Below, in pieces: positions 8,679-58,208 of a stretch of DNA of 64,000 nucleotides (the stretch's first letter is position 1; every line of letters begins with the position of its first letter). The notes under the pieces are model-generated. The model worked only from the letters and a program-made list of their open reading frames with translations, had not been told where the DNA came from and did not search any database. A program made the position numbers and the translations under genes. The stretch covers positions 1,488,001 to 1,552,000 of the forward strand of contig NZ_FNSO01000004.1 of assembly GCF_900105945.1 (NCBI RefSeq). The letters are read 5' to 3'. The stretch comes from Amycolatopsis tolypomycina (lineage in GTDB: Bacteria > Actinomycetota > Actinomycetes > Mycobacteriales > Pseudonocardiaceae).

Positions 8679-10916
8679 TTGTCTTCGGACGACTTCTCCG
8701 CCGAGCTCGCCCGCGAGCAGGCGTACGTCACCACCCTCTACACGAAGCTCGACGCCGAGCGCCTCGAAGCCCAGCGCCGCCTCGACGAGACGCTGCGGCA
8801 GACCGGCGGCACCCCGCAGGCCCGCACCGAGCGCGACGTCGCCACGACCCTCTACACCGACCGGCTCGCCCAGCTCGGCTCCGTCGAGCAGGGGCTGGCC
8901 TTCGGGCGGCTCGACTTCGTCCCCGAGAGCGCCGAGGAGACCACGTACATCGGCCGGCTCGGGCTCTTCGACGAGGACGACGACTACAAGCCGCTGCTGG
9001 TCGACTGGCGGGCGCCGGTCGCGCGGCCGTTCTACCTCGCCACCGCCGCGTCACCCGAAGGGGTGCGGCGACGACGGCACCTGCGGTCGCTGAGCCGCAA
9101 GGTCACCGGCTTCGACGACGAGATCCTCGACCTCACCGCCGCCGACCAGGGCCAGGACCTCGGGCTGGCCGGCGAAGCCGCGCTGCTGGCCGCGCTGGAG
9201 CAGCGCCGCACCGGCGAGATGAGCGACATCGTCGCGACCATCCAGGCCGAGCAGGACCGCATCATCCGCGCCCCGCTCGGCGGCGTCATGGTCGTGCAGG
9301 GCGGCCCGGGCACCGGCAAGACCGCCGTCGCGCTGCACCGCGCGGCCTACCTGCTCTACACGCACCGCCAGCAGCTCACCACCCGCGGCGTGCTCGTCGT
9401 CGGCCCGAACAGCACGTTCCTGCGCTACATCGGCCAGGTGCTGCCGTCCCTGGGCGAGACCGGCGTGCTGCTCGCCACCATCGGGCAGCTCTACCCCGGC
9501 CTGGACGCCGACGGCGTCGAACCGCGCGAAGCCGCCGAGGTCAAGGGACGCCTCGTCATGGCCGAGGTGCTCGCCAACGCCGTCCGCGACCGCCAGCGCG
9601 TGCCGGAGCCGGTCATGGAGATCGAGTACGAGCACGACGTGCTGCGGCTGGACCGCAAGACCTGCACCGACGCCCGGACGCGGGCCCGCCGCTCGCGCCG
9701 TCCGCACAACCCGGCGCGGCGCCTGTTCGTCTCCGACGTCCTCGACGCGCTGACCCGGCAGGCCGCCCGCAAGCTGGGGGACGACCTCCTGGACGGTCAG
9801 GATCTGCAGGACATCCGCGCCGAGCTGGCCGCGGACGAGCAGGTCACGGCCGCCCTCGACGCGCTGTGGCCGGTGCTGACGCCCGAAGGCGTGCTCGACG
9901 ACCTGTTCGCCGACCGCGAACGCCTCGCCGCGGCCGCCGGGAAGCTGCTGTCCCCCGAGGATCGCCTGCTGCTGGAGAGCGGCCGGGACGCCCGCTGGAC
10001 ACCCGCGGACGTGCCGCTGCTCGACGAGCTGGCCGAGCTGATCGGCGTCGACGACACCGAGGCCCGCGTCGAGCGCAAACGCCGTGAGCGCGAGGACCGT
10101 GCGTACGCCGAGGGTGTGCTCGACATCCTCGAGCAGGACGAAGAGATCATCGACGAGGAGCTGCTGCGCGTCTCCGACGTCCTCGACGCCGAGCTGTTCG
10201 CCGAGCGCCAGCAGGCGCGCAGCGAGCTGACGGCGGCCCAGCGCGCCGCCCAGGACCGGACCTGGACGTTCGGGCACGTGATCGTCGACGAGGCCCAGGA
10301 GCTGTCGGCGATGGACTGGCGGCTGCTCATGCGGCGCACGCCGAACCGGTCGATGACGCTGGTCGGCGACGTCGCCCAGACCGGCGCGGCGGGCGGCGCG
10401 CGCTCGTGGGGCGAGGTGCTTTCGCCGTACGTCGAGGACCGCTGGCGGCTGGAGCAGCTGACGGTGAACTACCGCACGCCCGCCGAGATCATGGCGGTCG
10501 CGGCGCGGGTGCTCGCCGAGGTCTCGCCTGCGCTTTCGGCGCCCTCGTCGGTGCGGGAGACCGGGGTGCCGCCGTGGTCGGTGCGCCCGGCGTCCCTGGC
10601 CGCGGAGCTGCCCGGGCTGGTGACGCGCGAGCTGTCCGAAGTGGACGGCGGCACGGTGGCGGTCCTGGTGCCCGCCGGCCGGTTCGACGAGGTGTCCTCG
10701 TGGTTTTCGGAGCACGACGAGCGGCTGAGCGTGCTGACGGTCGAGCGGTCGAAGGGCCTGGAGTTCGACTCGGTGGTGCTGGTCGCGCCCGACGAGGTCG
10801 TCGCGGGCTCGCCGCGCGGGCTCAACGACCTGTACGTGGCGTTGACGCGGGCGACCCGGCGGCTCGGCGTGGTCACCACCGGTGACGACGTGCCGGCACT
10901 CTCCGTGCTTGGCTAG
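8679..10916 (+). CDS. HelD/HelR-type UvrD-like helicase (RNA polymerase-associated)
   Basis: Superfamily 1 ATPase of the HelD class, which inserts into RNA polymerase channels and recycles stalled enzyme; some actinobacterial members (HelR) protect against rifamycins. About 745 residues: an N-terminal coiled-coil arm (AREQAYVTTLYTKLDAERL), Walker A GGPGTGKTAVAL near residue 207, a charged middle region, Walker B VIVDEAQELSAMDWRLL, motif IV-like TLVGDVAQTGAAG, and a C-terminal helicase half ending LYVALTRATRRLGVV. The TTG at 8679 (LSSDDFSAEL) is favoured over the TTG at 8646 because a promoter-like box lies just upstream of the latter. Whether it confers rifamycin tolerance cannot be read from the sequence. 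Confidence 0.88.
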   Translation: MSSDDFSAELAREQAYVTTLYTKLDAERLEAQRRLDETLRQTGGTPQARTERDVATTLYTDRLAQLGSVEQGLAFGRLDFVPESAEETTYIGRLGLFDEDDDYKPLLVDWRAPVARPFYLATAASPEGVRRRRHLRSLSRKVTGFDDEILDLTAADQGQDLGLAGEAALLAALEQRRTGEMSDIVATIQAEQDRIIRAPLGGVMVVQGGPGTGKTAVALHRAAYLLYTHRQQLTTRGVLVVGPNSTFLRYIGQVLPSLGETGVLLATIGQLYPGLDADGVEPREAAEVKGRLVMAEVLANAVRDRQRVPEPVMEIEYEHDVLRLDRKTCTDARTRARRSRRPHNPARRLFVSDVLDALTRQAARKLGDDLLDGQDLQDIRAELAADEQVTAALDALWPVLTPEGVLDDLFADRERLAAAAGKLLSPEDRLLLESGRDARWTPADVPLLDELAELIGVDDTEARVERKRREREDRAYAEGVLDILEQDEEIIDEELLRVSDVLDAELFAERQQARSELTAAQRAAQDRTWTFGHVIVDEAQELSAMDWRLLMRRTPNRSMTLVGDVAQTGAAGGARSWGEVLSPYVEDRWRLEQLTVNYRTPAEIMAVAARVLAEVSPALSAPSSVRETGVPPWSVRPASLAAELPGLVTRELSEVDGGTVAVLVPAGRFDEVSSWFSEHDERLSVLTVERSKGLEFDSVVLVAPDEVVAGSPRGLNDLYVALTRATRRLGVVTTGDDVPALSVLG

Positions 10917-11493: not shown

Positions 11494-11504
11494 GTTCCGC
11501 TCGC

Positions 11505-11534
11505 GAAGGGCCGCTTCCGCCGAAGCGGCCCTTC
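11505..11534. terminator. Perfect 13-bp hairpin between convergent genes
   Basis: GAAGGGCCGCTTC, a CGCC loop, then GAAGCGGCCCTTC. The 13-bp stem has no mismatch and lies in the 47-bp gap between the FKBP gene and the convergent quinone oxidoreductase, so it can act for both. There is no long T-run, as is common in actinomycetes. Confidence 0.85.
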
Positions 11535-11540
11535 GGCGTG

Positions 11541-17539: not shown

Positions 17540-17635
17540 GAGCGCGCGGAAAACGCGCTTTCGGCAGGCCCGGACGCCCAGAACAACGGCGTGGCCGCAA
17601 GGGACCAAGGTCACGCACGTCCCGGCCCGAACGCA

Positions 17636-17716
17636 CCCAATGTGGCGTTCGGTGCGTCCAACGCACCGAACGCCACATTGGGTGCGCTGGACGCAACCAA
17701 CGCCACATTGGGGCGC
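17636..17716. repeat. Mosaic palindromic repeat, copy A
   Basis: A perfect 22-bp inverted repeat (17636-17657 and 17661-17682, loop CCA) followed by a variant 30-bp unit (17683-17712) and GCGC. The shared core is CGCCACATTGGG. It lies between the ABC permease stop and ctaA, both on the minus strand, and is nearly identical to copy C at 50473: over 81 bp the two differ only in the loop. The hairpin could act as a transcript end for the permease operon. Confidence 0.93.
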
Positions 17717-17729
17717 TGGGGACCCCTGC

Positions 17730-18512
17730 TCAGGTGAGCTTTGTCGTCCGCGAAGCCACCGCGCCCGCGACTACCGCCCACACCGCGAGCACCACCATCG
17801 GCCCCGGCGCGAACGAACCGTCCACCAACGCCGCGCGCATCCCCTCCGCCAGCGCGCCCGACGGCAGCAGCTCCACCACGTGCGCCAGCCCGGACGGCAG
17901 CGACGACGGCGCCAGCAGGATGCCGCCCGCCAGCAGCAGCACGAACCACACGATGTTCGCCAGTGCCAGCACCGCCTCGGCCCGCAGCGCGCCACCCAGC
18001 AGCACGCCGAGCGCACCGAACGCCAAGGTCCCCACAATCAGCAGCAGCACCGCGGAAAACAGACCGGAAGCCGACGGCGACCAGCCGAGGAAAGCCGCCA
18101 CCACGCCGATGATCACCGACTGCAGGGCCACCACCACCAGAGCCGCCGCGAGGCGGCCCGCCACCAGCAGCCAGCGGGGCAACGCCGTGGCCGAAAGGCG
18201 CTTCAGCACCCCGTAGCGCCGGTCGAAGCCCAGGGCGATCGCCTGGCCGGTGAACGCCGACGACATCACCGCCAGTGCCAGGATCCGCGGCGTGATCCAG
18301 TCCACTCGCGACACCGGGCCCAGCGACGACGCCGGCAGGATGTCCAGCAGGGACAGGCCGATCAGCAGCGCCAGCGGGATCAACAGCGTCAGCAGCACCT
18401 GCTCGCCGTGGCGCAACGTCAGGCTGACCTCGATGCGCGCGTGCGTGCGCAGCATCCGGACCAGCGATCCCCGTCCGGGCGCGGGGGTGAACATCCCAGG
18501 AGCAAAAGTCAC
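17730..18512 (-). CDS. ABC-2 type transporter permease
   Basis: Membrane half of an exporter paired with the ATPase upstream. The 260-residue product has about six hydrophobic segments, for example LLTLLIPLALLIGLSLLDIL and SVIIGVVAAFLGW, and the ABC-2 style loop GFDRRYGVLKRLSATALPRW. The GTG at 18512 overlaps the ATPase stop (GTGA); the longer open frame to 19097 only shadows the ATPase. The pair occupies the place of Rv1457c/Rv1458c in M. tuberculosis (recall), next to mptB and ctaA. Substrate unknown; a lipid-linked or drug-like molecule is possible. Confidence 0.9.
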   Translation of the reverse strand: MTFAPGMFTPAPGRGSLVRMLRTHARIEVSLTLRHGEQVLLTLLIPLALLIGLSLLDILPASSLGPVSRVDWITPRILALAVMSSAFTGQAIALGFDRRYGVLKRLSATALPRWLLVAGRLAAALVVVALQSVIIGVVAAFLGWSPSASGLFSAVLLLIVGTLAFGALGVLLGGALRAEAVLALANIVWFVLLLAGGILLAPSSLPSGLAHVVELLPSGALAEGMRAALVDGSFAPGPMVVLAVWAVVAGAVASRTTKLT

Positions 18513-41488: not shown

Positions 41489-42109
41489 ATGACGATACCC
41501 GAAGGTGCGCGGCGCCGGTACGCATCGCCGGTACGCGAGGAACGCGCGCGGCGCACCCGTGCCCACGTGGTGGCGACGGCGGGGAAGCTGTTCGCCGCGC
41601 GGGGCTACGCGGGCACGAGCATGCGGCAGATCGCGGCGGAGGCGGGCGTGAGCCTGGAGACGGTGACGCAGACGGGCCGCAAGCCCCAGCTGCTGCTGGC
41701 GGCGTTCCGCGACGGCTTCGCGGGCGACCCGGACGCGCTGAACCTGGACGCCGTGGCGGGCCCGGCAGGCCCGGCGGACCTGCCGCCGGTGGTGTCCCGG
41801 GTGGCGGCGGGGCTGCGCGGATCGCTGCCGATCTGGCGCGCCTTCACGACGGCGGCCGCGGCGGACGCGGAGGTGGCGGCGGTCCGCGCGGAGCTGGCGG
41901 TGGTGCGCCGCGCGGACATCGCCGCACGCCTGGTGGCGTCGGGCATGGCCGACGGCGGCGAGATCGGGAGGCTGGCGGACGCGATCGGGCTGCTCATGTC
42001 GCACGAGGCGTACGACCACCTGACGGCGGTGTGCGGCTGGACGCACGAGGAGTACGTGGCATGGGCCGCGAAGGCGGTCCCGGCCCAGCTGACGCTCGAC
42101 TGGCGCTGA
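41489..42109 (+). CDS. TetR-family transcriptional regulator
   Basis: 206 residues: N-terminal HTH segment ARRTRAHVVATAGKLFAARG then TSMRQIAAEAGVSLETVTQT near residues 20-65, and a helical ligand-binding domain that ends with HEAYDHLTAVCGWTHEEYV. The ATG at 41489 follows a -10-like box by 7 nt; a TTG three bases earlier is the other option. Being divergent from the glycosyltransferase across only 38 bp, it most likely represses that gene until its ligand, perhaps the glycosylated compound, is present. Confidence 0.92.
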   Translation: MTIPEGARRRYASPVREERARRTRAHVVATAGKLFAARGYAGTSMRQIAAEAGVSLETVTQTGRKPQLLLAAFRDGFAGDPDALNLDAVAGPAGPADLPPVVSRVAAGLRGSLPIWRAFTTAAAADAEVAAVRAELAVVRRADIAARLVASGMADGGEIGRLADAIGLLMSHEAYDHLTAVCGWTHEEYVAWAAKAVPAQLTLDWR

Positions 42110-42129
42110 TCGCTGTTGTCCGGCCGCCA

Positions 42130-42274
42130 GCGCCCCAATGTGGCGTTGGTTGCGTTGGACGCACCGAACGCCACATTGGGTGCGTTGGATGCACCGAACG
42201 CCACATTGGGTGCGTTGGATGCACCGAACGCCACATTGGGTGCGTTGGATGCACCGAACGCCACATTGGGGCGC
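42130..42274. repeat. Mosaic palindromic repeat, copy B, with four 30-bp tandem units
   Basis: Left arm GCGCCCCAATGTGGCGTT (42130-42147) is the exact complement of the right arm at 42257-42274. Between them are four direct 30-bp units (42151-42180, 42181-42210, 42211-42240, 42241-42270); units 2-4 are identical and unit 1 differs at one base. It lies between convergent TetR and EAL-CBS-GGDEF genes and abuts the latter's stop codon. Could fold into a long hairpin and end both transcripts. Confidence 0.95.
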
Positions 42275-43998
42275 TAACCCGCGGCCGCCTGCAAGCCCCG
42301 GGATCCGATGCCGCGCAGCACTTCCACGCGGTCCGAGCCCGGGCGGCTCAGCACCCAGCTCGACCCCGGCACCGCCTTCGCGCGCTTCTTCAACGGCGCC
42401 AGCAGCCGCGAAACCTCCTGGTACGAACCGATCGCGTCGCTCGCGCACACCAACGTCGCCAGCGACACCGTCACCGGCAGGCCCTCCGCCGTCCACGTCC
42501 GGTCCAGCAGCGCCGCCGCCACCGTCGCGATCTCGTCGACGTCGCAGACCACCAGGAAGTCGTCGCCGCCCACGTGGCTCACCCGCATCCGGCGCAGGCC
42601 GGCCGCCAGCTCCGTCAATGCCCCGCCCAGCTCGCGGATCAGGTGGTCGCCCGCCGCGAAGCCCGCCGTGTCGTTGACCGTCTTGAAGCCGTCGATGTCC
42701 AGCCACGCCGCCACGAACGGCTCGCCGATCGTGATGCGGCGGGCGACGTCGCGGGCGACCGTGTCGCTGCCCGGCAGCCGCGTCAGCGGGTTCAGTGCCG
42801 CCGCCGCTTCGACCTTCGCCTCCGCCACGCCGCGGACCACCTCGGTCACCAGCACCACGCCGAGGCAGCGGCCGAGCTCGTCGACCACGACCACGTCGTC
42901 GCCGGTGCGACCCCAGTCGGCGTCGGTGACCAGCTCGAGGAACTCCATCGCGCCCGCGCGGGCCTCGATCGTGTGCGGGGTGTCGGCGAGCCGGGCCGCG
43001 GGGCGCTTCGCGTGCAGCGCGTGCCCGTACGGGCCGGTGACGGCCACCAGGAACCGGGTCCGGTCGACCGACCAGCGCGGCCGGTTCAGCTCGTCCACCC
43101 CGACCACGCCGCTCGGCGCGTCGGCCGCCGCCAGCACCGCGCGGACCTCGTCGCAGGTCGCCGACTCCGGCAGCGTCGTCGCCGGGCGGAGGAAGTCGCC
43201 GACGCACGGCGCCGGTGCCCCGGCCGTGGGGCGGCCGCGGGTGAGCAGGGCCGGCGCGGGACCGGCCGCGGTCGGCGGGGCGAGGAGGTGCCCCTGGGCG
43301 ATCCGGACGCCGAGGCCGCGGACGGCGTCGAGCTGCGCGTCGGTCTCCACGCCGGTCGCGACGAGCCGGGTGCCGGTGCGGTTCGTGTAGTGCAGCAGCG
43401 CCTCGACCACGGCGACGGCGGCCGGTTCGTCCGGCAGCCCGCGCAGCACGGTCCGGTCGAGCTTCACCAGGTCGATCGGCGCCTCGACGAGCAGGCCCAG
43501 CGGCAGGTCGCCGCGCCCGAGGCCGTCGAGCGCGAGCCGGAAGCCGAGCTCGGTGAGCGCCCGCATCCCGCCGAGCGCCCGGCCGGCGGGCAGCGGCGCG
43601 AACGGCGGGCCGATCTCGAGGACGACGTCGCGGGTGCGGCGGCCCGCGTCGCCGAGCGCGGCGAGGAGGTCGTCGTACAGCGACGGCGGCGCGGCCAGGG
43701 TGCGGGCGGAGAGGTTCAGGTGCAGGGGCAGCGACGTCGGGTTTTCGGCGTCCTGCCGGACGGCGGCGACCGCGAGCCCGAGGTCGGCTTCGGCGAGCCT
43801 GCCGTCGCGGCGCGCCTGCGCGAGCAGCTCGGGGACCGCTCCGCGGCCGGGCCTGGCCAGCGCTTCGTGCGCCACGACGCCTCCGGTGTGGAGGCTGTAC
43901 AGCGGCTGGAAGGCGAAGCGGACCGCGCGTGGCGACTTCACGGCCTCGATCGTCGCGGGTCGCGCGGCGCAGCGGAACCGATGTCGGCTGATGTTCAC
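42274..43998 (-). CDS. EAL-CBS-GGDEF domain protein (c-di-GMP signalling)
   Basis: 574 residues, soluble. N-terminal EAL-like domain: AFQPLYSLHTGGVVAHEALA near residue 30, HLNLSARTL, VVLEIGPPF, LALDGLGRG in place of DDFGTG, VKLDRTVLRG, and TGVETDAQL in place of EGVET. Several metal ligands are changed, so phosphodiesterase activity is doubtful. A CBS-pair-like middle (VVVVDELGRCLGVVLVTEVV) follows. The C-terminal GGDEF domain has AAWLDIDGFKTVNDTAGFAA and HVGGDDFLVV, with Asp for the usual Glu. It may sense c-di-GMP or adenine nucleotides. Start ATG 43998 has only GGTG as ribosome site. Confidence 0.87.
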   Translation of the reverse strand: MNISRHRFRCAARPATIEAVKSPRAVRFAFQPLYSLHTGGVVAHEALARPGRGAVPELLAQARRDGRLAEADLGLAVAAVRQDAENPTSLPLHLNLSARTLAAPPSLYDDLLAALGDAGRRTRDVVLEIGPPFAPLPAGRALGGMRALTELGFRLALDGLGRGDLPLGLLVEAPIDLVKLDRTVLRGLPDEPAAVAVVEALLHYTNRTGTRLVATGVETDAQLDAVRGLGVRIAQGHLLAPPTAAGPAPALLTRGRPTAGAPAPCVGDFLRPATTLPESATCDEVRAVLAAADAPSGVVGVDELNRPRWSVDRTRFLVAVTGPYGHALHAKRPAARLADTPHTIEARAGAMEFLELVTDADWGRTGDDVVVVDELGRCLGVVLVTEVVRGVAEAKVEAAAALNPLTRLPGSDTVARDVARRITIGEPFVAAWLDIDGFKTVNDTAGFAAGDHLIRELGGALTELAAGLRRMRVSHVGGDDFLVVCDVDEIATVAAALLDRTWTAEGLPVTVSLATLVCASDAIGSYQEVSRLLAPLKKRAKAVPGSSWVLSRPGSDRVEVLRGIGSRGLQAAAG

Positions 43999-47551: not shown

Positions 47552-50461
47552 GTGCGTCGTACCCGTTCCACGAGATCGAGATCCACTGTGTTCACCGCCT
47601 CGGCCGCGGCGCTGCTCGCCGCGCTCGGGCTGGTTTCCCCGCCTGTCGCGGGGGCCGCACCCGCGTCCGCGCCGGACGCGTTCAGCGAAACCGCTCAGCA
47701 GCAGATCGCCGCCCTGCAGGCGGTCAAGGCGGGCCGCACCGCCACCGAGTCCAAAGTGGACAGCAAGCTGCTCGTCGCCACCAAGGGCGTCGCGAAGCAG
47801 CTGAACAGTTTGCAGTCTGGGGCCACCGTTTCCGCGGCCGGGACCGTCCTGGTCGACATCCGCGCGAGCAAGGTCTCGCCCGACCTCCTCACCGGGCTCA
47901 CCAAGGCCGGGGCCGGCATCCGCGCGGTGTCCGACCGCTACGGCAGCGTCCGCGCCGAAGTGCCGCTCGACAAGGTCGGCGAGATCGCCGCGCGCGGTGA
48001 CGTCAAGCGCGTCGAACAGGCCGACCAGGCGATGACCGCCCGGGAACTGGCCACGCCGGCGACGGCGCCGGAAAAGACCGAAACCAAGCAGCAGAAGGCC
48101 GACCGCATCGCCGGTGAGCTGCAGAAGGCCGTGGCCGCCAAGACCCAGCGCAGCGCCGCCGCGGCCGCTCCGCTGGTCAGCGAAGGCGACCGCGCCCACA
48201 ACGCCGACCTCGCACGCCAGCAGTTCGGCGTCACCGGCGTCGGCGTCAAGGCCTGCGCACTGTCCGACGGCGTCGACTCCCTCGCCGCTTCGCAGGCCAG
48301 GGGCGAACTGCCGGCCGTCGACGTCATCGCCGGCCAGGAGGGCGACGGCGACGAGGGCACCGCAATGCTCGAGATCATCCACGACCTCGCGCCCCGCGCC
48401 GCGCTCGGCTTCGCCTCGGCGTTCAACTCCGACGCCAGCTTCGCGGACAACATCCGCAAGCTGCGCTTCGAGTCGCACTGCGACGTCATCGTCGACGACG
48501 TCATCTACTTCAAGGAATCGCCGTTCCAGGACTGGATCATCGCCCAGGCCGTGAACGACGTGACCGCCGACGGCGCGCTGTACTTCTCGTCCGCGGGCAA
48601 CGAAGGCAACGTCGCCAGCGGCACCGCCGCGCACTGGGAAGGCGACTTCGTCGACTCGGGCAAGTCGGTCGGCAAGTTCGCCGGCACCGCGCACAACTTC
48701 GCCGGCGCGGCGGGCAACCAGATCTACGAGCCGATCTCGAACGCGTCCTCGGCCAGTGTCCCGGTGACGCTGCACTGGTCGGACCCGCTCGGCGCGTCCG
48801 CGAACGACTACGACCTCTACCTGCTCAACTCCGCGGGCGCGGTCGTCAGCTTCAGCCAGGACGTCCAGACCGGCACCCAGGACCCGTACGAGCGCGTCAC
48901 GACGCCGGCCTTCGGCGGCACCGGGCTGCGGCTGGCCGTCGTGAAGTTCTCGGGCCAGAACCGCTACCTGTCGCTTTCCGCGCTGCGCGGCCGGTTCTCC
49001 GACTCGGCCGACGGGCTCAAGGCCTACAACACCCCGGGCGTGACGGTCGGCCACTCGGCCGCGCGGGACGCCTTCAGCGTCGCGGCCGCCCCGGCGGCCA
49101 AGGCGTTCGGCCGAGCCCTCGAACCGGGCGACCCGGCCAACCCGGCGGGCCCGTACCCGGGCGCGTTCAGCGGTGCCACCAAGGCCGAGCGGTTCACCTC
49201 CGACGGTCCGCGCCGCGTGTTCTACGAGGCGAACGGCACGCCGATCACCCCGGGCAACGTGTCCTCGACCGGTGGTGAGGTCCGGAACAAGCCGGAGATC
49301 ACCGCGGCCGACGGCGTCACCACCAGCGTCACCGGGTTCAACCCGTTCTTCGGCACCTCGGCCGCCGCACCGCACGCGGCCGCCATCGCCGCGCTCGTGC
49401 TGTCCGGCAACCCCGGCCTGCCGCCCGCGGAGGTCCGCGAAGCGCTGATCAACACCGCGATCGACATCGAAACCCCGGGCCGCGACAACTTCACCGGGGC
49501 CGGCGTCATCCTCGCGGACAAGGTGCTCGCCTACACCGGCGCCAGCCCGCAGCCCCTCGCGGTGGCCAAGCAGCCGACGGTCACCCCGGCCGACGGCGGC
49601 TCGGCGCTCGACCCGGGCGACACCGCCAAGGTGACGCTGCCGGTGACCAACGACGGCGACGGCACCGCGGTGTCCACCAGCGTCGTGCTCACCAGCCCGA
49701 CCCCGGGCGTCACGGTGGCGCCGCGGTCCAAGTCCTACGGCACCATCAGCCCGGGACAGACCGGCGTCAACGACTTCACCATCACCGTCCCGGCGAGCCA
49801 GCAGCTCGGCGCGCCGGTGGTGCTGAACGCCCGGGTCAGCTTCGCCGGCTCGCACTCGCCGACGACGTCGACGTTCTCGCTCCCGGTCGGCACCCCGTCG
49901 CCGGTCGCGCAGGACTTCGCCTACACCGGCGCGCCGGTGGCGATCCCGGACAACAGCCCGGTCGGCGCGTCGGTGACCATCCCGGTCACCGGGGTCGGCC
50001 GCGCGTCCAAGGTGACGTTCTCCGTGGACGGCACGACCTGCAGCACCGACCCGAACTCGACGACGGTGGGTCTGAACCACTCGTACGTCGGTGACCTGGT
50101 CGGCACGCTGACGGCGCCGTCCGGGGCGAAGGCCACGGTGTTCCAGCGCAACGGCAGCTCGGGCAAGAACCTGTGCCAGGTCGTCTTCGCCGACAGCGCG
50201 GCGGCCGCGTTCAGCACGGTGACCTCGGCCAACGCGCCGTTCACCGGCACCTGGCGGCCGACGCAGGCCCTGACCGGCAACCTCGCCGGCGCGGCGGTCG
50301 ACGGCACGTGGACGTTCGCGGTGGTCGACGCGGCCGGCGGCGACGCCGGGTCGATCCGCTCGGTCGCCCTGCACATCAACGGGTTCGTGCAGCCCGCGGC
50401 GGCCGGCGCGCCGTCGCACGTGCGGGGCTACACGAACAACGGGCCGGTGCATCCGCTGTAG
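47552..50461 (+). CDS. Secreted subtilisin/sedolisin-like protease with C-terminal P-domain
   Basis: 969 residues. An Arg-rich signal peptide (cut near VAGAAPA, about 30), a long pro-region, then a catalytic domain: ALSDGVDSL near residue 237, DEGTAMLEIIHDLAP near 270, and the Ser loop FFGTSAAAPHAAAIAALVLS near 602. The HGT histidine motif of subtilisins reads EGT; together with E-x3-D (EIIHD) it resembles the S53-like subgroup. A beta-sandwich (about 680-770) and a proprotein-convertase P-domain (VAIPDNSPVGASVTIPVTG to ALHINGF) follow. GTG with GGAGGG upstream. Likely degrades extracellular protein. Confidence 0.88.
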   Translation: MRRTRSTRSRSTVFTASAAALLAALGLVSPPVAGAAPASAPDAFSETAQQQIAALQAVKAGRTATESKVDSKLLVATKGVAKQLNSLQSGATVSAAGTVLVDIRASKVSPDLLTGLTKAGAGIRAVSDRYGSVRAEVPLDKVGEIAARGDVKRVEQADQAMTARELATPATAPEKTETKQQKADRIAGELQKAVAAKTQRSAAAAAPLVSEGDRAHNADLARQQFGVTGVGVKACALSDGVDSLAASQARGELPAVDVIAGQEGDGDEGTAMLEIIHDLAPRAALGFASAFNSDASFADNIRKLRFESHCDVIVDDVIYFKESPFQDWIIAQAVNDVTADGALYFSSAGNEGNVASGTAAHWEGDFVDSGKSVGKFAGTAHNFAGAAGNQIYEPISNASSASVPVTLHWSDPLGASANDYDLYLLNSAGAVVSFSQDVQTGTQDPYERVTTPAFGGTGLRLAVVKFSGQNRYLSLSALRGRFSDSADGLKAYNTPGVTVGHSAARDAFSVAAAPAAKAFGRALEPGDPANPAGPYPGAFSGATKAERFTSDGPRRVFYEANGTPITPGNVSSTGGEVRNKPEITAADGVTTSVTGFNPFFGTSAAAPHAAAIAALVLSGNPGLPPAEVREALINTAIDIETPGRDNFTGAGVILADKVLAYTGASPQPLAVAKQPTVTPADGGSALDPGDTAKVTLPVTNDGDGTAVSTSVVLTSPTPGVTVAPRSKSYGTISPGQTGVNDFTITVPASQQLGAPVVLNARVSFAGSHSPTTSTFSLPVGTPSPVAQDFAYTGAPVAIPDNSPVGASVTIPVTGVGRASKVTFSVDGTTCSTDPNSTTVGLNHSYVGDLVGTLTAPSGAKATVFQRNGSSGKNLCQVVFADSAAAAFSTVTSANAPFTGTWRPTQALTGNLAGAAVDGTWTFAVVDAAGGDAGSIRSVALHINGFVQPAAAGAPSHVRGYTNNGPVHPL

Positions 50462-50472
50462 TCCCCAAACAC

Positions 50473-50553
50473 CCCAATGTGGCGTTCGGTGCGTCAGACG
50501 CACCGAACGCCACATTGGGTGCGCTGGACGCAACCAACGCCACATTGGGGCGC
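50473..50553. repeat. Mosaic palindromic repeat, copy C
   Basis: Perfect 22-bp inverted repeat (50473-50494, 50498-50519; 23 bp if the loop is closed to one base), a variant 30-bp unit (50520-50549) and GCGC, nearly identical to copy A. It starts 11 bp after the protease stop. The base after GCGC is the first T of the next gene's TACCTT box, so the element touches a promoter. Confidence 0.94.
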
Positions 50554-50565
50554 TACCTTCTGCCC
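50554..50565 (+). promoter_or_regulatory. Candidate -10 box directly after repeat C
   Basis: TACCTT (50554-50559), 6 nt, ATG at 50566. The -35 region would lie inside the repeat, so the repeat may influence this promoter. Confidence 0.45.
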
Positions 50566-58076: not shown

Positions 58077-58208
58077 TCGAAGAGTCATCACGCGTGATTG
58101 GAGGGTCAACTCACGTGATTGAAGGGTCGACACGGTGCCAGTGCCGTGTCGACCCTCCAATCACGCGTGTCGACCTTTGAATCACGCGTGTCGACCCTCC
58201 AAGCACGT
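58072..58208. repeat. 21-bp repeat family, second locus, arranged as inverted array
   Basis: Left: three direct units around GCGTGATTGGAGGGTC (58072-58133). Right: three inverted 21-bp units (58146-58166, 58167-58187, 58188-58208), core GTGTCGACC...AATCACGC. The arms meet at the perfect inverted repeat GGGTCGACACGG / CCGTGTCGACCC. It separates the convergent ABC exporter and serine hydrolase genes, overlaps the exporter's stop, and encodes the last eight codons of the hydrolase. Confidence 0.9.

What the first reader, a model, noticed from the sequence alone, without database searches (positions are those of the whole stretch)
42130..42274. 30-bp mosaic palindromic repeat family in three intergenic sites
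Copies A (17636-17716) and C (50473-50553) are 81 bp long and differ only in the hairpin loop, although 33 kb apart. Copy B is the reverse complement of A with one inverted 30-bp unit missing and three identical direct units added. All copies use the same cap, ending GGGGCGC, and the core CGCCACATTGGG. This grammar (cap, units in either orientation, variable count) implies active copying or recombination by an unknown mechanism, resembling REP/MITE-like elements. The perfect 22-bp arms imply recent spread or selection. No transposase is in the window.
Basis: partly seen in the sequence, partly recalled or inferred. Interest (0 to 1): 0.72.

Follow-up and report, generated by a model that had tools for sequence, protein, structure and literature searches.

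The report
Interchangeable hairpins at gene ends
Three look-alike DNA hairpins in this soil bacterium belong to a family scattered over more than a hundred places, mostly just after gene ends, where related species often carry other, unrelated hairpins in the same spots; this suggests that end-of-gene signals can be mobile and swappable.

Summary
A, B and C belong to a dispersed, modular palindrome family: 518 exact 14-nt cores in this 10.36-Mb genome (reversed control 0) and at least 135 central palindromes. Elements are 17-bp cores alternating with 13-bp palindromic spacers (30-bp unit), with outward-pointing ends of different types. Of 106 sampled intergenic elements 71 are convergent, 29 tandem, 6 divergent (junctions without element 74/447/131). 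In 18 related genomes the same 3'-end sites often hold unrelated hairpins: 43 of 92 convergent, 33 of 399 tandem, 4 of 99 divergent cells; two families share a cell in 1 of 80. At site C, 5 element carriers lack the U-tailed terminator that 12 of 14 other close relatives have. Best reading: a non-autonomous mobile palindrome used as 3'-end hairpin (bidirectional terminator and/or RNA end). Copying of whole elements is supported; the mobiliser is unknown (no Y1/RAYT domain, no target-site duplication). Exclusion of other hairpins is clear in convergent slots only. Eight of 114 elements lie in frame inside genes, mostly PKS/NRPS linkers and an E2 linker. Kin in design: BOX, SPRITE, REP/BIME, RPE. 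Termination itself is untested.

The parts
17632..17717 (+). Element A, form <>> (alpha< alpha> beta>), about 12 nt past the stop of the minus-strand ABC-2 transporter gene 17730-18455 (tandem context)
   Evidence: RNA fold -62.2 kcal/mol, z -8.9
42129..42275 (-). Element B, form <>>>> (beta< alpha> x4), between convergent genes; its last bases (CT of GCGCT) form part of the stop codon of the minus-strand EAL/GGDEF gene
   Evidence: RNA fold -99.2 kcal/mol, z -10.1
50469..50554 (+). Element C, form <>> (alpha< alpha> beta>), about 6 nt past the stop of the subtilase gene; stands where 12 relatives have a U-tailed terminator
   Evidence: RNA fold -56.4 kcal/mol, z -7.4
17636..17682 (.). Central palindrome of A: two inverted 17-bp cores around a 13-bp palindromic spacer (with flanks, 26-bp perfect arms and a 3-nt loop)
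42146..42270 (+). Direct 30-bp units of B (13-bp spacer plus 17-bp core)
17730..18455 (-). ABC-2 membrane protein gene whose 3' end A follows
41567..42109 (+). TetR-like gene converging on B
42274..43941 (-). EAL/GGDEF gene converging on B
47588..50461 (+). Subtilase gene whose 3' end C follows

Best explanation
The three copies belong to a non-autonomous, modular palindromic repeat family of Amycolatopsis and a few related genera. Whole elements are copied to new sites by an unidentified machinery and then change: tandem 30-bp units expand, probably by slippage, and the middle unit or the two ends change orientation between species. They are kept just downstream of stop codons, above all between convergent genes. 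There the strand-symmetric RNA hairpin replaces the usual terminator hairpin and serves as the 3' end of one or both transcripts, by stopping RNA polymerase and/or by protecting the RNA end. Other unrelated palindrome families use the same slots, so an occupied slot usually holds one hairpin but its family changes between species. SHOWN: dispersal, grammar, 3'-end position, scarcity of other hairpins in element-bearing convergent slots, presence/absence and replacement between species at the sites examined, no Y1 domain found and no TSD signal. INFERRED: termination or end protection, copying in trans, slippage.
For: 518 cores, reversed control 0. 114 elements found in 0.89 Mb (100 stretches around listed sites plus the window): 71 convergent, 29 tandem, 6 divergent, 8 inside genes. 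Junctions without an element in the same DNA: 74/447/131; convergent enrichment p=6e-33, divergent depletion p=1e-4. In tandem pairs 24 of 29 lie nearer the upstream stop (median 9 nt) than the next start (median 96 nt). Own genome, slots of 25-500 nt: another hairpin (arm score 9 or more) is present in 20 of 28 element-free convergent slots but in 8 of 63 element-bearing ones (Fisher 5.7e-8); shuffled element-free convergent slots give 3.6%. Eighteen genomes: hairpins in 43/92 convergent, 33/399 tandem, 4/99 divergent cells; two families in 1 of 80. Slot 8 has 8 hairpin clusters in 15 of 16 genomes, slot 52 has 3 in 15 of 16. Site C, 19 close genomes: five element carriers lack the canonical terminator; of the other 14, 12 have it and 2 have another palindrome with TTTT (Fisher 0.0018). 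In G298 and G319 a TTTT run still follows the element at this site (ACCGTTTTCCC, ACCTTTTGTCC), as if only the old hairpin had been exchanged. Folding z -7.4 to -10.1. Favoured core version differs by genome.
Against: No transcript or 3'-end data were available. No U-tract in general: TTTT within 30 nt in 0 of 101 right and 1 of 101 left flanks, so a classical intrinsic terminator is not met. Exclusion is not shown outside convergent slots: in tandem slots another hairpin is present in 3 of 25 element-bearing and 40 of 214 element-free ones, in divergent slots in 0 of 6 and 19 of 127. At site B, 6 of 12 assessable relatives have only 5-21 nt and no hairpin, so a hairpin is not obligatory there. 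One cell (G278, slot 45) holds two hairpins. The 18 genomes are related, so cells are not independent, and the well-filled slots are few (8, 45, 52). Eight elements lie inside reading frames, where termination would be harmful. Flanks are not complementary within a locus beyond chance, so insertion into an existing hairpin loop is not supported.
Confidence: 0.62

Rival explanations
1. A purely selfish palindromic repeat that is merely tolerated at gene 3' ends, the least harmful place, without a function there.
For: Croucher et al. propose this for pneumococcal repeats enriched between convergent genes (PMC3049150, passages). Whole-element copying and in-frame copies in linkers fit a selfish element. 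In tandem slots no clear exclusion of other hairpins is seen (3 of 25 against 40 of 214).
Against: Tolerance alone does not predict the scarcity of other hairpins in element-bearing convergent slots (8 of 63 against 20 of 28), nor the loss of the canonical terminator at site C (0 of 5 retained against 12 of 14).
Confidence: 0.22
2. A DNA-level role: the core is a binding site for a chromosome-organising protein or topoisomerase between convergent genes, as described for BIME-2 and gyrase.
For: Near-invariant core (518 exact copies) and convergent position. BIME-gyrase binding is described in PMC2817692 (passage).
Against: The same slots are filled by hairpins with unrelated sequences, and the favoured core version changes between genomes, so hairpin form rather than sequence seems to be what is kept.
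Confidence: 0.1
3. A REP/BIME mobilised by a RAYT (Y1) transposase.
For: Architecture: short palindromes in both orientations, variable number, mostly intergenic.
Against: No PF01797 match in this genome or in the six congeners searched (G291, G223, G015, G054, G085, G141); the same search finds E. coli and 4 other of 14 control genomes.
Confidence: 0.03
4. A TIR-type MITE moved by the DDE transposase of a full-length IS.
For: Outward-pointing ends act like ~20-bp TIRs (AAGCGCCCCAATGTGGCGTT); empty sites exist.
Against: No clear TSD: of 1792 register/length combinations the best has z 4.5 for a rise from 0.30 to 0.35 in base identity, away from the element's edges. No systematic search for a parent IS was run; the IS5-like element seen in the cores has different ends.
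Confidence: 0.15

Closest known systems
BOX elements of Streptococcus pneumoniae / S. suis (PMC3049150, passages)
   Same: Fixed end modules around a variable number of middle modules; stable stem-loop; open reading frames through the element; enriched between convergent genes
   Different: BOX ends and middle are different sequences and BOX is reported to make TSDs; here ends and middle are versions of one 17-bp core, the middle can lie in either orientation, and no TSD is seen
SPRITE of S. pneumoniae (PMC3049150, passages)
   Same: Dispersed repeat strongly enriched between convergent genes close to 3' ends; thought co-opted as terminator
   Different: SPRITE has a U-rich tract and is AT-rich, and its modular form is not described; this family generally has no U-tract, is GC-rich and modular
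REP / BIME of E. coli and others (PMC2817692, passages)
   Same: Extragenic palindromes in mosaics of both orientations, >100 per genome, species-specific versions
   Different: REPs go with RAYT (Y1) genes; none found here. Unit, spacing and 13-bp palindromic spacer differ
Rickettsia palindromic elements (recalled; only named in PMC10969869)
   Same: Palindromes also found in frame within protein genes (recalled)
   Different: Here 8 of 114 sampled copies are in genes (mostly linkers); most are at 3' ends
Bidirectional intrinsic terminators (PMC5381666, passages)
   Same: Strand-symmetric hairpin between convergent genes
   Different: Generally no U-tract; sequence is dispersed and replaced between species, whereas in Bacillus cereus bidirectional terminators are more conserved than others

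Membership tests
REP/BIME with RAYT | High-copy, mostly extragenic palindromes, often as inverted/direct mosaics | tested here: met
REP/BIME with RAYT | Cognate RAYT (Y1_Tnp) gene in the genome, flanked by REPs | tested here: not met
   PF01797: 0 matches in G000; 1 of 10 genomes has one (G163, other genus, with an internal stop)
MITE | Terminal inverted repeats | tested here: met
   flank positions 1-9 outside the terminal cores are conserved as an inverted repeat in 101 elements; the 101 were chosen for an inverted pair of exact terminal cores, which makes the core part circular
MITE | Target-site duplication | tested here: not met
   no clear TSD excess in 101 elements; by eye, site A filled in G319 against empty in G141 shows none
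MITE | Autonomous parent IS with the same TIRs | not tested
   none seen in the loci read, but no search for one was run
BOX | boxA and boxC ends around n boxB modules | tested here: not met
   ends are versions of the same core as the middle
SPRITE | Stem followed by U-rich tract | tested here: not met
   TTTT in 0 and 1 of 101 flanks
Intrinsic terminator | Stable hairpin just after the stop codon | tested here: met
Intrinsic terminator | U-tract after the hairpin | tested here: not met
   exceptions at site C in G298 and G319
Intrinsic terminator | Transcripts end there | not testable with these tools
   no transcript data
Curated RNA families (Rfam 15) | Score over gathering cut-off | tested here: not met
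   0 in the window; in five other loci searched by E-value only sub-threshold microRNA matches

The most novel reading that the evidence does not exclude
In Amycolatopsis the transcript 3' end is a slot that holds one strand-symmetric hairpin, and the hairpins are mobile: several unrelated palindrome families compete for, displace each other in and are swapped between the same slots within a genus, so terminators are inherited by position and not by sequence. Some copies are recruited in frame as linkers of megasynthases.
Probability: 0.42. Interest if true: 0.8.

Novelty: new variant of a known kind. Interest (0 to 1): 0.62.

Why it matters
If it holds, terminators, usually treated as slowly evolving host signals, can be mobile, competing modules whose identity turns over between species that are about 90% identical in the region compared. 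It would give a natural system for asking what a gene end needs (a hairpin, which sequence, a U-tract or not) in GC-rich actinomycetes that make antibiotics. It also shows palindromic repeats entering coding sequence as linkers in polyketide and peptide synthases and in a core metabolic enzyme.

Tried and rejected
1) Insertion into the loop of a pre-existing terminator hairpin: rejected, because flanks of one locus are no more complementary than flanks of different loci (duplex energy -28.3 against -28.4). 2) TSD: none clear. 3) RAYT/Y1: none. 4) Spread by phages: exact central palindrome 0 in viral contigs; the 14-mer hits (one per listed contig) were taken as chance and not read. 5) Known RNA: none over cut-off. 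6) DNA-uptake-like word: considered, no test run. 7) Hit in a Myxococcales MAG (L039): a lone core without palindrome, taken as chance. 8) My first inverted-repeat script missed even-loop palindromes; its scores are not used, and corrected routines are.

Selection and dropped rows: one search listed 100 of 114 C-centre sites, all of which were fetched or lie in the window; of the 21 T-centre sites, 13 were not fetched. 13 of the 114 elements lack a clean pair of exact terminal cores and were left out of the tests on 101. 92 of the 101 have clear polarity. The slot test used junctions between window positions 9,000 and 58,500 whose flanking genes are at least 150 nt long; 56 long slots were skipped, and three more distant genomes (G301, G310, G223) were left out. 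At site C, 11 more distant loci (L302-L312) were left out of the count of 19; at site B 17 of the 30 loci had no match for the left flank. The orthologue comparison used loci fetched because they contain a cap, so presence there is conditional. Genes were called by my own codon-usage script, not a standard gene finder.

Full report
WHAT IS THERE. The three window copies were read directly. The core CGCCACATTGGG occurs 11 times in the window with up to one mismatch (0.43 expected), all in A, B and C. In the whole genome (10.36 Mb, 4 contigs; the window is C4:1488001-1552000) the 14-mer AACGCCACATTGGG occurs 518 times and its reversed control 0 times. The exact central palindrome occurs at 114 places with C at the centre and 21 with T, so at least 135 places. 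The would-refute condition of the finding (only three sites) is therefore excluded.

GRAMMAR. I fetched 100 stretches around listed sites and found 114 elements in these and the window. An element is a row of 17-bp cores separated by 13-bp palindromic spacers of the form TGCGTNNNACGCA (17+13 = 30). In the 101 elements with both terminal cores exact, every one has the form <^m >^n with m=1 or n=1: 40 <>>, 28 <<>, 12 <>, 21 longer. The ends differ: alpha (TTCGG) and beta (TTGGT) or gamma (TTGGG). One alpha with one beta or gamma end is seen in 92 of 101, alpha-alpha in 3, beta-beta in 1, other mixtures in 5. Set with alpha to the left, three-unit alpha/beta elements are 35 <>> and 26 <<>, and all 21 longer ones have their extra units on the alpha side, in line with slippage between identical direct units. 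Other genomes show exceptions (L067 and L095; L034). Identical whole elements occur in groups of 11, 7 and 6, and the two spacers of an element are linked in the <>> class (p=0.003) but not significantly in the <<> class (p=0.135). I read this as copying of whole elements.

POSITION. 71 are convergent, 29 tandem, 6 divergent and 8 inside genes. Junctions without an element in the same DNA are 74 convergent, 447 tandem and 131 divergent. In tandem pairs the element is nearer the upstream stop in 24 of 29. In convergent pairs the median distances to the two stops are 19 and 13 nt. At B the stop codon of the EAL/GGDEF gene overlaps the element's end.

OTHER GENOMES. In a draw of 297 genomes of the family, 18 (own included) have the 14-mer. 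Outside the genus, G020, G058, G163 and G028 have it in minus/plus pairs 33 nt apart, the palindrome spacing; single hits in G117, G198 and G199 may be chance. In 60 genomes of the genus 35 (own included) have at least one. Genomes favour different core versions: AACGCCACATTGGG / AAGGCCACATTGGG / GAAGGCCNCCTTGGG are 518/1/1 in G000, 322/1/1 in G298, 53/340/87 in G319, 34/185/89 in G323 and 0/94/0 in G332. At orthologous sites in loci of that scan (23 pairs; flanks 82-96% identical), 2 of 23 partners lack the element. Of 17 pairs with assignable polarity 10 agree and 7 are opposite, no different from chance (p=0.63). Of 11 pairs with three units on both sides the normalised middle unit is flipped in 9 (p=0.035). 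Arrangement is thus not inherited in step with the flanks.

SLOTS. The syntenic window was fetched from 20 genomes (17 at 88-94% identity in aligned stretches, 3 at 82-84%). In 590 slot-by-genome cells of the 18 close genomes (own included), a strong hairpin (arm score 12 or more) is present in 39 of 92 convergent, 23 of 399 tandem and 0 of 99 divergent cells, and no cell has two families. At score 9 or more it is 43, 33 and 4, and one cell of 80 has two families. The occupant changes. At slot 8, 15 of 16 genomes have a hairpin in 8 sequence clusters, one of which (G320) is a poly-G/C run that looks like an assembly artefact. Slot 52 has 3 clusters in 15 of 16; slot 45 (site C) has 4 in 15 of 17. 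At site C the close relatives carry a hairpin of the type GGTACGGGGCCGTCGCG...CGCGGCGGCCCCGTACCG followed by three to five T (12 genomes: G327, G330, G308, G194, G332, G278, G317, G299, G322, G334, G141, G239; G278 has a second palindrome too), or the element without that hairpin (G000, G319, G320, G298, G323), or another palindrome ending in TTTT (G318, G312). In G298 and G319 a TTTT run still follows the element, as if only the hairpin had been exchanged; in G000 and G320 the place reads CTTCTG (homology of these tails is my inference). Fisher p=0.0018, not corrected for relatedness. Eleven more distant loci (L302-L312) hold other sequences there, several with other palindromes, and were not counted. 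At site A, G319 has the element with another core version, G298, G299 and G323 have a GTCGTGAGTG palindrome, G194 a GAATGAGTCATTC-type one, G141, G332 and G330 none, and others have longer unrelated insertions. At site B only G000 has an intact element; of 12 assessable relatives 6 have 5-21 nt and no hairpin, one 32 nt, two another palindrome, two long insertions, and G308 (L256) an element-like, eroded sequence. In the own genome, another hairpin is present in 20 of 28 element-free convergent slots but in 8 of 63 element-bearing ones (p=5.7e-8). Outside-element sequence is shorter (about 75 against 125 nt per slot), but per kb the rate is still about 3.5 times lower (9 hairpins in 4.74 kb against 23 in 3.51 kb). 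In tandem slots the contrast is weak (3 of 25 against 40 of 214) and in divergent ones untestable (0 of 6 against 19 of 127).

MECHANISM. The RNA of A, B and C folds far better than shuffles (z -8.9, -10.1, -7.4), as an inner hairpin (A) or a cap-to-cap rod (B, C). There is generally no U-tract, so a U-less terminator, help from Rho or other factors, or protection of the RNA end is meant; this is inference. For movement, Y1_Tnp was not found, no clear TSD is seen, and flanks are not pre-existing hairpins. The mobiliser is unknown.

IN GENES. Eight of 114 elements lie in frame inside genes. Six lie between domains: E2 acyltransferase between lipoyl and E3-binding domains (L167), before carrier domains (L189, L248), between AT and KR (L191, L250), and between the KS linker and AT (L211). 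One is close to the C-terminal part of an adenylation domain (L198), and one is near the C-terminus of a methionyl-tRNA-synthetase-like protein (L202). In the E2 enzyme, 17 of 121 aligned sequences (query included) have a unit-like peptide by motif; of the 40 rows viewed, the query and P0001-P0004 have it and the other 35 have an Ala/Pro linker in its place. The 30-bp unit is 10 codons, so changes in unit number keep the frame.

KNOWN KINDS. BOX (modular, convergent, ORFs) and SPRITE (terminator-like, convergent, thought co-opted) are the nearest precedents (PMC3049150, passages). REP/BIME: PMC2817692 (passages). MITEs: PMC10969869 (passages). General enrichment of inverted repeats downstream of transcript ends in bacteria: PMC13155455 (passages). 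Conservation of bidirectional terminators in Bacillus cereus, the opposite of the turnover seen here: PMC5381666 (passages). I noticed no report of this family in the listings (20 of 108 papers listed; 6 of 6; 12 of 63; 12 of 20; sequence words; 15 of 33; 1 of 1; 1 of 1); most subscription journals are not in that library.

LIMITS. No expression data; related genomes; one syntenic region for the slot test; home-made gene calls; site choice favoured elements with exact central palindromes.

Noticed in passing
window 58089-58190: Another composite palindrome family (CACGCGTGATTGGAGGGTC...) fills this convergent slot; hairpins of the same cluster fill it in 11 of 16 genomes examined.
   Followed up: partly
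window 11504-11535: Hairpin CGAAGGGCCGCTTC..GAAGCGGCCCTTCG in a convergent slot; of the other close genomes only G319 shares it, most others hold different hairpins.
   Followed up: partly
L169, L171, L235, L017, L022, L544: An IS with a DDE_Tnp_4 transposase (ends GAGGTTTTCTCAGTAG) is inserted at the same point of the core (ACATT/GGG); where both ends were read (L169, L171, L235) the triplet ATT/AAT is duplicated. The sample was chosen for cores, so exclusivity is not shown.
   Followed up: partly
L066: A second insertion of about 1.1 kb with ends GTTGTTTCATCGTG also sits in the core.
   Followed up: no
L159, L207, L229, L243 and others: A ~55-bp module is inserted at the same point of a spacer in many elements of several genomes, and also occurs alone elsewhere (L548, L542, L527).
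   Followed up: partly
L145; G320 slot 8: Long poly-G/poly-C runs inside elements, probably assembly artefacts at strong hairpins.
   Followed up: no
G020, G058, G163, G028: The same palindrome spacing in a few copies in other genera of the family, suggesting old or horizontal spread.
   Followed up: no
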